A stretch of DNA of 64,000 bases, taken from assembly GCF_007827695.1 (NCBI RefSeq), contig NZ_VITA01000019.1, positions 1 to 64,000 of the forward strand, given 5' to 3'. Positions 8,338 through 15,068 of this stretch are shown here, one piece after another. How positions within the stretch are numbered: position 1 is the stretch's first letter; each line of letters opens with the position of its first letter. The DNA comes from Sinorhizobium medicae. GTDB lineage: Bacteria > Pseudomonadota > Alphaproteobacteria > Rhizobiales > Rhizobiaceae. A program made the position numbers and the translations under genes. Below the pieces are notes generated by a model. That model searched no databases. It had not been told where the DNA came from and saw only the letters and a program-made list of their open reading frames with translations.

Positions 8338-10032
8338 ATGCCGGACGGCGATACGACACTGCCTGGTTCACCTTCCGTCGATTCTGGATTTTTCGCCGAT
8401 TTTGACGAAGTCGTCTCGCTTTACGACGAAAATTTTCAACTCATCGAATGCACGCCAAGGCACAGAGAAGCATATGTCGTCGAGTCCCTCATAGAGACGT
8501 CCCTTTGGCACATTTATCCTGAACTACTGGCGCCGGGTGCGAAGTCCGCTGTCGAGTTCGTGGTCGCGACCGGATTGCCGAGAACCGTCGAGATCGCACA
8601 TGCATCGGCCGGGCCCCGGCGCACGCTCCTCATTTTCCGCAGTAGGAGCGGCGTCGGAGTCGTCGAAGCTGAAAGCAGTGCCATGTATCGCGAGACGTTC
8701 AGGCAGAGCGAGAGCGATCGTGCGCTACTCCTGCATCAGGCGACCCATGACGTTCTGACCGGATTGCCCAACCGGCGTCAGTTCAGCGATCAGCTGCGCG
8801 GCGCGTTGCCAGTACCGAACGGTGCGCAAGTGGCGCTCATGCAGATCGATCTCGATGACTTCAAGCCGATCAACGATACATTGGGCCACGGGGCAGGCGA
8901 TGCAGTTCTCAAAATGGCGGCGGATCGGATCAGGAGCATTCTGAGGGATAGGGAGTTCGCGTACCGTTTGGCCGGGGACGAGTTCGCTGTCATTCAATGG
9001 AGGTCCGATCAGCCCAGCGAGGCCGAGCGCCTTGCAGACGCATTGATCAACGCGTTCAAAGAACCTTTTATGGTAGAGGGCATCAACGTTTTTGTTGGGG
9101 CAAGCGTCGGAATTGCAGTCGCTCCGGAAGACGGCAACGAAGTCGAGCAGCTTATGAAAGCTGCCGATATCGCGCTTTATGCAGCAAAGAAGGACGGTCG
9201 GGGCCGCTCAAGCACGTTTACCCGCTCCATGCTCGTCGTCCTCGAACAGAGGGAAATGCTGCGGCGCAGCCTGCGCACCGCCCTCCAGGAGGGGCAGTTC
9301 TTCCTCGAATACCAGCCATTGGTGAAACCATCGTCGTCGGTCGCCGGCTTCGAAGCACTCTTGCGTTGGCGTCACCCGCTGGTCGGCACTATCCCGCCGA
9401 ACGTCTTCATTCCAATGGCGGAAGCCGACGGCCTGATGAGCGACATCGGCCGGTGGCTTCTCGAGCGGGCGTGCCGGACAGCGATGGACTGGCCGTCCCA
9501 CTTCACGCTCGCGGTCAACTTATCGCCGGCGGAGTTCCTTCACGAGGGGCTTACGGATCGTGTGGCCCAGACGCTTGACCTGGTCGGGATGCGAGCAGAT
9601 CGCCTCGAGCTGGAAATTACCGAGTCGGTGCTGCTGGAACGTACGATCAACAATCTCGATACGCTTAACACATTGAACGTCCTGGGTGTGCAAATATCGC
9701 TCGACGATTTCGGTACCTACTACTCGTCGCTGAGTTATCTGAAGAATTTTCCCTTCGACACGATCAAGATCGATCAGTATTTCATCAAGGATCTCGAGAG
9801 GAATGAGAAGGGCCAGACGATCGTCCGCTCCATCATCGCGCTCGCTCATGGTCTCGGCATGAATGTCACTGCCGAAGGGGTCGAGACCGCGGGGCAGGCA
9901 GCCTGGCTCCAGAAAGAAGGCTGCGATCGGTTGCAGGGATATTTTCTAGGGGCGCCCATGGCTGCGGACGCGATAGGCGACTTTCTCCGCAAAGCCTCTG
10001 CCACTCCTGCCACAGGCCTTCAACGAATATGA
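8338..10032 (+). CDS. PAS-like/GGDEF/EAL c-di-GMP turnover protein
   Basis: A 564-residue soluble protein with three parts. Residues about 15-110 look like a PAS-type sensor (FFADFDEVVSLYDENFQLIE). Residues about 135-290 are a GGDEF domain whose signature reads RLAGDEF near residue 212, an AGDEF variant that can remain an active diguanylate cyclase. Residues about 310-550 are an EAL domain with EALLRW at 339, ELEITESVLL, and a loop-6 motif reading DDFGTYYSSL near 456, where the usual reading is DDFGTGYSSL. The EAL glutamate and most metal-site residues therefore look intact, but the Gly-to-Tyr change could lower phosphodiesterase activity. No membrane segment. The partner-switch genes start 70 bases downstream in the same direction, so the two probably share control. 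Net activity (making or breaking c-di-GMP) cannot be read from the sequence. Confidence 0.88.
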   Translation: MPDGDTTLPGSPSVDSGFFADFDEVVSLYDENFQLIECTPRHREAYVVESLIETSLWHIYPELLAPGAKSAVEFVVATGLPRTVEIAHASAGPRRTLLIFRSRSGVGVVEAESSAMYRETFRQSESDRALLLHQATHDVLTGLPNRRQFSDQLRGALPVPNGAQVALMQIDLDDFKPINDTLGHGAGDAVLKMAADRIRSILRDREFAYRLAGDEFAVIQWRSDQPSEAERLADALINAFKEPFMVEGINVFVGASVGIAVAPEDGNEVEQLMKAADIALYAAKKDGRGRSSTFTRSMLVVLEQREMLRRSLRTALQEGQFFLEYQPLVKPSSSVAGFEALLRWRHPLVGTIPPNVFIPMAEADGLMSDIGRWLLERACRTAMDWPSHFTLAVNLSPAEFLHEGLTDRVAQTLDLVGMRADRLELEITESVLLERTINNLDTLNTLNVLGVQISLDDFGTYYSSLSYLKNFPFDTIKIDQYFIKDLERNEKGQTIVRSIIALAHGLGMNVTAEGVETAGQAAWLQKEGCDRLQGYFLGAPMAADAIGDFLRKASATPATGLQRI

Positions 10033-10102
10033 GCGGGTGAATGCCGGTTTTTCGAACGGATTTTGAAGCAAGCGTCGCGTTTTTGCGTAAGGGAGAAGCT
10101 GC

Positions 10103-10621
10103 ATGCACGGAGCCGAAAATCACCGCACGGAGGCCGCTTACGAGCCCTTGCTCCAATTCGAGATGGAGATGGGCGCCTTTCTTTCCGATTGGAACCATTG
10201 CGATCAGCTGTCGAGCTTCATGGCTCGGATGATAAGTCACAATCGTACGGATCCCGTTCGCCACTCGAATTTCTTTTCATCCGCCCTGAACGAACTCCTG
10301 GAGGTTTCGTTCCGCGGCGGCTCACCCGATGGCCGGATCGGCTGTGCGGTCTATCGCAGGGGTCCGACCGAACGGGTCGAATTGACTTTCCCCTGTCCGC
10401 CCGGTCAGAGGCAGTTCTATGGCGAGGCGGTGGCGAAGACCCGCGACGGCGACGCTCATGCGCGCTACCTCGATTCCATCGCCACCGATCTCGCGCCCAG
10501 TCGCGAGGCTGTTCTTCTGGACCTCTCGATCAATTTCGACGCGGACGTTCGACTCGGCGAAAGCGATCCGCCATCGATCACGCTTGTCGTGGATCTGCCT
10601 CTTGAAGGAGTTGTGCGGTGA
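10103..10621 (+). CDS. Degenerate HATPase-like partner-switch protein (SiaB/slr1657-1659 neighbourhood type)
   Basis: A 172-residue soluble protein. Its only clear motif is SALNELLEVSFRGG (residues about 60-74), matching the N-box of anti-sigma/SpoIIAB-type ATPases and closely resembling the [10 protein letters not shown] box of the second HATPase gene at 14158. The glycine-rich ATP-lid motif seen in that second protein is absent, so ATP binding may be weak or lost. The start at 10103 has agggagaag upstream; the stop overlaps the next start by four bases (GTGA), so translation is coupled. By position and fold it is probably a kinase-like or docking partner for the STAS domain that begins the next gene, analogous to SiaB in the Pseudomonas SiaABC system. 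Function is inferred, not shown. Confidence 0.6.
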   Translation: MHGAENHRTEAAYEPLLQFEMEMGAFLSDWNHCDQLSSFMARMISHNRTDPVRHSNFFSSALNELLEVSFRGGSPDGRIGCAVYRRGPTERVELTFPCPPGQRQFYGEAVAKTRDGDAHARYLDSIATDLAPSREAVLLDLSINFDADVRLGESDPPSITLVVDLPLEGVVR

Positions 10622-14153: not shown

Positions 14154-14157
14154 GCGG

Positions 14158-14715
14158 ATGACGACCTTGTATGGACTGGAGGATCTCGCCGTCGGGCCGG
14201 GCGAGAATGTGACGAAACTCCGTCTCTTCGACGGCCCGCTCGATCTCGGGTGGAAACATTGCGCGATGACCTCCGATTTTGTGGCCGAGTTCGCTGCCCT
14301 GCGCTACAAAACGTCTCGCGTCGTCTACAAGGAGGTGCGTCACAATGTCGGCTATCTGACCAATGAGCTGATAGAGAATGCTGTGAAATTCCGCGCTGGC
14401 GGGGAAATCGTCGTGGAGGCATCGATCGCCTCCAACACATTTCGGACAAAAGTTTCCAATCTCGTGGACAAAGGAACAGCCGACACGTTCCGCCACATCC
14501 TTTCGGAAATAACGATAGGAGATCCATCCGACCTTCTGATACAGCGGATAGAGGCAAATGCAACAGGTTCGGGATCGGGTTCCGGGCTTGGACTTCTCAC
14601 CCTCATGAGCGATTATGGTGCTCACTTCGCGTGGGTTTTTGGATCCGGCGAAGAGGATGGCAAGATCCCGCTGGAGACCTATGCCTCAATCGCAATTCCC
14701 GACCTCTCGAATTGA
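14158..14715 (+). CDS. HATPase (anti-sigma-factor-like kinase), slr1658-type
   Basis: A 185-residue soluble protein with the two ATP-binding motifs of the GHKL fold: the N-box [17 protein letters not shown] near residue 65 and the glycine-rich [18 protein letters not shown] near 140. These resemble the SpoIIAB/RsbW serine kinases that phosphorylate STAS antagonists, and the protein I recall as Synechocystis slr1658. It follows the phosphatase stop by four bases and its own stop overlaps the STAS start by one base, so phosphatase, kinase and STAS substrate are co-translated in the standard partner-switch order. There is no histidine-kinase dimerisation domain, which argues against a two-component kinase. 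Confidence 0.7.
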
Positions 14716-15068
14716 TGGGCACCGAATACATGGAAATCAAGGAAGACGAATATCGCGTTTGGTCGGAAGGAAACGACATCTATTTCGACGGGACGATGCG
14801 CCTGCCGAGCACCGAGGCCTATGCGCCGATCTTCGCCCTCGTGACGAGCGTGCTCGAAGCCGAGCCGGAGCGCATGACTGTCGATCTCACGGGGCTGCAG
14901 TTTCTTAATTCTTCGGGAATCAACCTGCTCGCCAAGCTCACCATCGAAGCACGCAAACGGCCGAACATACAGTTCACTGTTCGCGGAAGCTCAGAATTCC
15001 CCTGGCAGTCGAAATCCCTGCCGAATCTTAAAAAACTCCATCCGGGTGTCGACCTGAGGCTAGGCTGA
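14715..15068 (+). CDS. STAS-domain anti-sigma antagonist-like protein, slr1659-type
   Basis: A 117-residue single-domain protein. The central [18 protein letters not shown] (about residues 57-74) is the STAS signature, in which one of the two serines at about 65-66 would be the phosphorylation site controlled by the neighbouring HATPase and SpoIIE phosphatase. The start codon overlaps the HATPase stop by one base (TGATG); a second ATG fifteen bases later is a weaker alternative. As the last gene of the module its output partner is not visible: candidates are the GGDEF-EAL enzyme at 8338, by analogy with SiaC acting on SiaD, or the methyltransferase fusion at 10618. No sigma factor gene is present in the window. 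Confidence 0.75.

What the first reader, a model, noticed from the sequence alone, without database searches (positions are those of the whole stretch)
8338..15068. Sia-like partner switch joined to a c-di-GMP enzyme and a methyltransferase
Six co-directional genes combine a PAS-GGDEF-EAL protein, a degenerate HATPase-like protein, a STAS-like/methyltransferase fusion, a Cache-HAMP-SpoIIE phosphatase, a glycine-motif HATPase and a STAS protein. The last five overlap or almost touch. The known SiaABCD system pairs a phosphatase, kinase and STAS-like protein with a diguanylate cyclase; here there are two STAS-type domains, two HATPase-type proteins and an extra methyltransferase output. This would be a two-branch switch (c-di-GMP and methylation) driven by one extracellular sensor.
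Basis: partly seen in the sequence, partly recalled or inferred. Interest (0 to 1): 0.78.

Follow-up and report, generated by a model that had tools for sequence, protein, structure and literature searches.

The report
Partner-switch operon with a methyltransferase output
A tightly conserved set of five overlapping genes in rhizobia and related bacteria looks like a sensor-driven protein switch whose built-in output is a methyltransferase, with a neighbouring signalling gene that is exchanged for other signalling enzymes in other species.

Summary
The six genes are real and at the stated places; the stretch is identical to a Sinorhizobium medicae megaplasmid. Five of them (B-C-D-E-F, 10103-15068) form an inseparable core: same order and strand in 77 of 80 fetched relatives, the other three being cut by contig ends. 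D-E-F is a complete switch: SpoIIE phosphatase, slr1658-family kinase with ATP motifs, slr1659-family STAS with an invariant serine. B-C is a divergent copy of the E-F pair that lost the chemistry: B lacks the Mg-binding Asn (81 of 81 rows); C has Asn at the phospho-site (81 of 81 rows; in a second set three genomes of one genus have Met or Ser) and is fused to an intact class I methyltransferase. So two phosphorylated STAS domains are unlikely, and E and F are not SiaB/SiaC members. The GGDEF-EAL gene adjoins the core in 37 of 80 loci; 32 others have a divergent SpoIIE phosphatase headed by a 40-residue coil, which also heads cyclases in genomes with such switches. Best model: dephosphorylated F binds B, freeing methyltransferase C, and docks on the exchangeable outputs. 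No description found in the open-licence papers searched. New variant of a known kind.

The parts
8338..10032 (+). A: GGDEF-EAL protein, 564 aa, with a weakly PAS-like N-terminal domain (about 8362-8679). AGDEF and EALLRW motifs present. Clade-specific accessory of the core.
   Evidence: Pfam GGDEF 153 bits, EAL 239 bits; next to the core in 37 of 80 loci; N-terminal domain found in 6 of 297 genomes of the order sample, all of them carrying the core
10103..10621 (+). B: HATPase-fold protein without kinase motifs (N-box Asn replaced at 10304-10306), 172 aa; divergent copy of E
   Evidence: slr1658_superfam 28.3 bits, below cut-off; model closest to SiaB 6kko and SpoIIAB; hhalign with E profile: probability 96, E 4e-9; Asn absent in 81 of 81 rows
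10618..11796 (+). C: STAS-like domain (about 10645-10965; NN at 10807-10812 in place of N-Ser) fused to a class I SAM methyltransferase (about 11053-11793), 392 aa
   Evidence: slr1659_superfam 37.7 bits, below cut-off, and Methyltransf_11 66.9 bits; model pLDDT 89; best solved match 3mgg methyltransferase; hhalign with F profile: probability 90.8, E 1.2e-6
11793..14153 (+). D: membrane receptor phosphatase, Cache-like sensor - HAMP (13149-13298) - SpoIIE/PP2C (13563-14147)
   Evidence: Pfam SpoIIE 131.5 bits, HAMP 46.6, dCache_1 35.5 (below cut-off); the only SpoIIE match at E <= 0.001 in its genome; GDVTGHG in 76 of 76 and GGDYYD in 74 of 76 relatives read
14158..14715 (+). E: slr1658-superfamily GHKL kinase, N-box NELIENAVK and glycine box GSGLGLLT
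   Evidence: slr1658_superfam 163 bits, cut-off 100; N-box Asn in 77 of 77 rows
14715..15068 (+). F: slr1659-superfamily STAS protein; NSSG phospho-site motif at 14907-14918 (Ser at 14910-14912)
   Evidence: slr1659_superfam 134 bits, cut-off 100; NSSG in 77 of 78 rows, the odd row (L157) being a misassigned hit on C

Best explanation
A five-gene partner-switching operon (B-F) with a built-in methyltransferase output. The receptor phosphatase D senses something outside the cytoplasm. Kinase E phosphorylates the STAS protein F on its NSSG serine, and D removes the phosphate. B is a kinase-dead relative of E that cannot phosphorylate but keeps the STAS-binding fold; it holds C through C's unphosphorylatable STAS domain. 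When D is active, unphosphorylated F competes for B (and E), which releases or re-pairs the STAS-methyltransferase C and so switches methylation of an unknown substrate. F, or freed C, also acts on a second, exchangeable output: the GGDEF-EAL protein A here, and a coil-headed SpoIIE phosphatase or cyclase in other lineages. Shown by sequence: gene order, overlaps, families, conserved and lost motifs, common origin of the B/E and C/F pairs, alternative accessory genes. Inferred: every binding and phosphotransfer step, the sign of the switch, the substrate.
For: Core order and strand kept in 77 of 80 loci, the other 3 cut by contig ends, and in 20 of 20 loci fetched from unnamed whole genomes. 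Start-stop overlaps: C/D 4 bases in 73 of 76, B/C 4 bases in 57 and 1 base in 16 of 77 loci where both ends could be read. B found in only 2 of 240 class genomes, both with C. Profile matches B-E (E 4e-9) and C-F (E 1.2e-6). Kinase motifs kept in E and lost in B; serine kept in F and lost in C. Methyltransferase motif residues (ADxCxGIGDF, ALDH, GDA) near invariant; mean column identity 83% in the methyltransferase against 63% in the STAS part. D is the only SpoIIE protein found in its genome.
Against: No interaction, phosphotransfer or methylation was tested. C has Ser at the canonical site in one whole-genome relative (G275) and Met in two of the same genus (G061, G369), so loss of that serine is not universal. 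B could be a structural subunit of C that never meets F. The lack of a glycine box in B rests on the alignment and family scores, not on an assay. The first 50 solved-structure matches of the C model are all methyltransferases, so its STAS part rests on profiles and secondary structure.
Confidence: 0.5

Rival explanations
1. Decoy model: the unphosphorylatable STAS domain of C binds kinase E directly and titrates it, so C tunes the switch, while the methyltransferase works as a feedback or housekeeping activity and B is only a chaperone or subunit of C.
For: C's STAS is a divergent copy of E's substrate with the acceptor serine replaced; B and C are translationally coupled and co-occur.
Against: It leaves the near-invariant methyltransferase and the conserved kinase-dead B without a role in the signal.
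Confidence: 0.2
2. One reading: B and E are both working kinases, C and F are both phosphorylated and dephosphorylated, one branch driving c-di-GMP through A and the other methylation.
For: Two HATPase-fold proteins, two STAS domains, one phosphatase and one c-di-GMP enzyme are present. One whole-genome relative (G275) has Ser at C's site; many C proteins have Thr one residue later (28 of 81 rows).
Against: B lacks the N-box Asn in 81 of 81 rows, and C lacks the Ser in 81 of 81 rows, with Val, Ile, Ala, Leu or Met at the next position in 53. A is absent from 43 of 80 clusters.
Confidence: 0.1
3. F is a hub: the essential event is docking of unphosphorylated F on output proteins (the coil of the accessory phosphatase or cyclase, or the N-terminal domain of A), as SiaC docks on the SiaD stalk; B-C is a side branch.
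For: The 40-residue coil is found in 8 of 8 searched core-bearing genomes without A, in 0 of 10 with A and in 0 of 2 same-genus genomes without the core, and also heads the diguanylate cyclase beside the free-standing slr1658/slr1659/SpoIIE set of G759. SiaC binding to the SiaD stalk: passages of PMC8457831.
Against: The coil did not match the solved SiaD chains in the two phmmer searches tried; A has no such coil; direct binding is untested. It does not explain B-C.
Confidence: 0.15
4. Ordinary neighbours: unrelated signalling genes that travel together on a megaplasmid without forming one switch.
For: The cluster lies on megaplasmids in Sinorhizobium, and its distribution in the order is patchy (12 of 297 genomes, own included).
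Against: Order kept over several families, with overlaps.
Confidence: 0.05

Closest known systems
SiaABCD of Pseudomonas aeruginosa
   Same: Receptor SpoIIE phosphatase, HATPase-fold kinase, STAS-fold substrate, c-di-GMP enzyme in one cluster; the B model's best solved match is SiaB; D's best NCBIfam hit is SiaA.
   Different: All four SiaA-D model scores lie under their cut-offs; Ser-type NSSG motif instead of the SiaC Thr68; second, motif-less pair with a methyltransferase; A is a GGDEF-EAL protein without a SiaD-like stalk and is exchangeable.
slr1658/slr1659 superfamily pairs (Synechocystis; NCBIfam NF047703 and NF047705)
   Same: E and F are members by curated cut-off. Genome G759 holds a free-standing set with SpoIIE and a diguanylate cyclase.
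   Different: Here the pair is doubled, one copy without its catalytic motifs and fused to a methyltransferase. For slr1658 only a mutant phenotype was seen in print (iron-starvation recovery; Plant J 2018 known only through passages of PMC7555055).
SpoIIAA/SpoIIAB/SpoIIE and RsbV/RsbW/RsbU switches
   Same: Same enzymology and folds; SpoIIAB is the second-best solved match of the B model.
   Different: No sigma factor in the core; the output is an enzyme fused to a STAS domain.
UbiE/MenG and other class I methyltransferases
   Same: Methyltransferase fold and SAM motifs; 3mgg (Methanosarcina mazei) is the nearest solved one.
   Different: All UbiE/MenG scores are far below cut-off (63.9 against 216 at best). 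Database records name B 'UbiE' although B is not a methyltransferase.

Membership tests
SiaABCD | SiaB family kinase (NF038262) | tested here: not met
   E 13.9 bits, cut-off 85; B no hit
SiaABCD | SiaC phosphoprotein (PF09345) | tested here: not met
   F 14 bits, cut-off 24.5; C no hit
SiaABCD | SiaA phosphatase (NF038263) | tested here: not met
   D 129.9 bits, cut-off 700, matching residues 442-796
SiaABCD | SiaD diguanylate cyclase (NF038266) with SiaC-binding stalk | tested here: not met
   A 104.6 bits, cut-off 290, GGDEF part only; coil regex found no motif matching the accessory coil in A relatives
slr1658 superfamily (NF047703) | curated score cut-off 100 bits | tested here: met
   E 163 bits; B only 28.3, not met
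slr1659 superfamily (NF047705) | curated score cut-off 100 bits | tested here: met
   F 134 bits; STAS part of C only 37.7, not met
Partner-switching system (phosphatase, kinase, STAS) | all three component types in one cluster with catalytic motifs | tested here: met
Partner-switching system (phosphatase, kinase, STAS) | phospho-dependent exchange of binding partners | not testable with these tools
   needs protein biochemistry
UbiE methyltransferase | curated UbiE/MenG cut-offs | tested here: not met
   C 63.9 bits, cut-off 216, and lower for the other UbiE/MenG models
Class I SAM methyltransferase | Pfam gathering score and fold | tested here: met
   Methyltransf_11 66.9 bits, cut-off 21.2; fold match E 5.4e-20 to 3mgg

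The most novel reading that the evidence does not exclude
A partner switch that controls an enzyme by a catalytically dead copy of itself: a pseudo-kinase (B) and a phospho-blind STAS-methyltransferase (C) act as the slave pair of an active kinase-STAS pair (E-F), and the same F-type STAS docks on a portable 40-residue coil (DLxLLYEATIEHGEAVEDQLAE) that was put onto a phosphatase, a class III nucleotide cyclase or a diguanylate cyclase, so that one extracellular sensor can be wired to methylation, cAMP, c-di-GMP or a second partner switch.
Probability: 0.35. Interest if true: 0.8.

Novelty: new variant of a known kind. Interest (0 to 1): 0.62.

Why it matters
Known partner switches end in sigma factors, cyclases or secretion (recalled). 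Here the conserved end point is a methyltransferase, a kind of output I found in no paper searched (open-licence library only). The operon is present in S. meliloti 1021, a laboratory model, so its mechanism is directly testable. The doubled pair, one active and one without motifs, is a natural experiment in how such switches gain outputs, and the coil gives a testable docking rule for uncharacterised cyclases and phosphatases.

Tried and rejected
Rejected: filing as a Sia system (scores under cut-off); B as a methyltransferase, as some plasmid records name it; A as a fixed member of the cluster; an upstream start of D at 11757 (overlap pattern).

Led nowhere: phmmer of the coil against solved structures gave only weak coiled-coil or chance matches, no SiaD; the B profile had no solved-structure sequence match and the E profile only weak ones; S. 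meliloti gene-number literature search, 0 papers (the SMb numbers tried were my guess from memory), and a second Sinorhizobium c-di-GMP search, 0 papers; promoter scan, 1 site found against 2.1 expected; substrate of the methyltransferase: no specific pointer.

The A8 and coil genome searches scored at most 15 and 25 candidates per genome, so their absences are weaker than their presences; G061 has A by tblastn but was missed by A8. An earlier Fisher value left the own genome out of the core-bearing count; the corrected values are.
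Full report
Observation. The window holds six co-directional genes at 8338-15068. The stretch is 100.0% identical over 6731 bases to the Sinorhizobium medicae WSM419 plasmid NC_009620.1 (117174-123904), and C is 97% identical in the S. meliloti 1021 plasmid NC_003078.1. Gene starts were refined from the sequence: B/C overlap by GTGA, C/D by ATGA, E/F by TGATG, D and E are 4 bases apart. Among relatives the C/D overlap is 4 bases in 73 of 76 loci read and the B/C overlap 4 bases in 57 and 1 base in 16 of 77.

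What the proteins are. A is GGDEF-EAL; its N-terminal domain is only weakly PAS-like. D is a Cache-like (below cut-off), HAMP, SpoIIE receptor phosphatase and the only SpoIIE protein found in its genome at E <= 0.001. E and F belong to the slr1658 and slr1659 superfamilies by curated cut-off; B and the STAS part of C are below those cut-offs, but profile comparison joins B to E (probability 96, E 4e-9) and C to F (probability 90.8, E 1.2e-6). The B model (pLDDT 87.8) is closest to SiaB 6kko_A (Foldseek E 9.7e-5, TM 0.60) and SpoIIAB. The C model (pLDDT 89.2) matches class I methyltransferases, best 3mgg; its STAS part did not bring a STAS structure into the 50 rows shown. So B-C is a second, divergent copy of the E-F pair, with a methyltransferase added.

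Which chemistry is left. In window plus relatives: E has the N-box Asn in 77 of 77 rows and glycine-box residues nearly throughout (one row, L154, Val for one Gly; L073 has Arg for one). F has NSSG in 77 of 78 rows; the odd row, L157, is a misassigned hit on C. B has Thr, Val, Met, Ile or Ala in place of the Asn in 81 of 81 rows. C has Asn-Asn in 81 of 81 rows where F has Asn-Ser. In a second set, 63 loci cut from unnamed whole genomes (several genomes twice), C has Asn in 57, Met in 4 (two genomes, G061 and G369) and Ser in 2 (one genome, G275), all three of one genus. D keeps GDVTGHG in 76 of 76, GGDYYD in 74 of 76 and a DD(I/L/V)T(L/V) motif in 75 of 76 relatives read. C's methyltransferase motif is near invariant; mean column identity is 83% in the methyltransferase against 63% in the STAS part. 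D-E-F can therefore run a phosphorylation cycle; B-C very probably cannot.

How far it is conserved. A profile of C found 276 relatives among 332 matched stretches in the named genome collection; the best 80 were fetched. B, C and at least part of D are present in all 80, and B-C-D-E-F in that order and strand in 77; L102, L112 and L157 end inside D at a contig end. In loci fetched from unnamed whole genomes the core is complete in 20 of 20 with long flanks, and A-B-C-D lie in order in 30 of 30 loci of the genus, own included. In the genus C is found in 30 of 32 other genomes (one a 46-residue piece; G005 and G018 lack it, and both lack E too). In samples, full-length C occurs in 12 of 297 genomes of the order (own included) and 3 of 337 of the class (own included). 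The other hits were generic methyltransferases at 26-37% identity. B occurs in 2 of 240 class genomes, both with C. Loss or transfer seems common, core loss of single genes not: I saw no locus with part of the core on an unbroken contig among the 80 and the 20.

The accessory gene. A adjoins the core in 37 of 80 loci (36 same strand, L152 divergent; L137 counted on its 53% tblastn hit); 32 have instead a divergent SpoIIE phosphatase, none has both, 11 have neither within the flanks. On the tree of C the 37 A rows are one side of a branch with 100/100 support, so the change happened once; that the phosphatase state is older is inference (midpoint root). The accessory phosphatase carries a coil with HGEAVED(Q/E)L (31 of 31 listed; 32 loci). 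A 40-position coil profile hit 8 of 8 core-bearing genomes without A, 0 of 10 with A, 0 of 2 same-genus genomes without the core, and G759. Elsewhere in such genomes the coil heads class III nucleotide cyclases (frames in L201, L203, L204; identified by eye from the sequence, not by a family search) and, in G759, the diguanylate cyclase beside a free-standing slr1658/slr1659/SpoIIE set. In the order sample the coil was found in 5 genomes and A's N-terminal domain in 6 (own included), all among the 12 with the core and none among the other 285 (Fisher 4e-8 and 1e-9; genomes are related, so these are descriptive). The twelfth, G061, has A by tblastn. G000 holds a second A-type gene away from the core.

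Mechanism. Best model (0.5): D and E set the phosphorylation of F; unphosphorylated F competes for B and thereby switches C; F or C also acts on A or on the coil proteins. Only the anatomy is shown. Closest analogue for docking: SiaC on the SiaD stalk (passages of PMC8457831). The phosphatase/kinase couple SiaA/SiaB acting on SiaC: passages of PMC7647112.

Literature. Searches in the open-licence library found no description of this operon, of a STAS-methyltransferase output or of slr1659 biochemistry. For slr1658 I saw passages of PMC7555055, which cite a 2018 Plant Journal paper I did not see. Passages of PMC8256260 and PMC11109978 held nothing on a methyltransferase joined to a STAS protein. 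Other listed papers were seen as listings only. Subscription journals are mostly not held.

Verdict. Real, conserved and apparently undescribed; a new variant of the partner-switching kind rather than a Sia member.

Noticed in passing
window 30857-30940, - strand: chrB-a RNA (RF03078), 77.4 bits against a gathering score of 43.9, the only Rfam match in the window.
   Followed up: no
L213 (G000:C36, around 13695-13970): A second protein of the same kind as A (similar N-terminal domain plus GGDEF-EAL, 583-residue frame) in the window's own genome, on another contig.
   Followed up: partly
L091 3019-8254 and relatives: In Roseibium-type loci the core lies near a type VI secretion TssA-like gene (Pfam; relatives in 12 loci), genes that look like TssB and TssC (by eye), and a STAS and an RsbW-like HATPase_c_2 gene (relatives in 18 loci each).
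   Followed up: partly
L177 4485-9140: Free-standing slr1658/slr1659/SpoIIE set with a coil-headed diguanylate cyclase and a substrate-binding-protein-like gene between them, in another class of the phylum.
   Followed up: partly
L164 9770-10288 (CP090105.1): B is annotated as 'ubiquinone biosynthesis methyltransferase UbiE', probably a carried-over misnaming.
   Followed up: yes
L145 and L090: The core appears in metagenome bins labelled Chthoniobacteraceae and Gammaproteobacteria; transfer or mis-binning.
   Followed up: no
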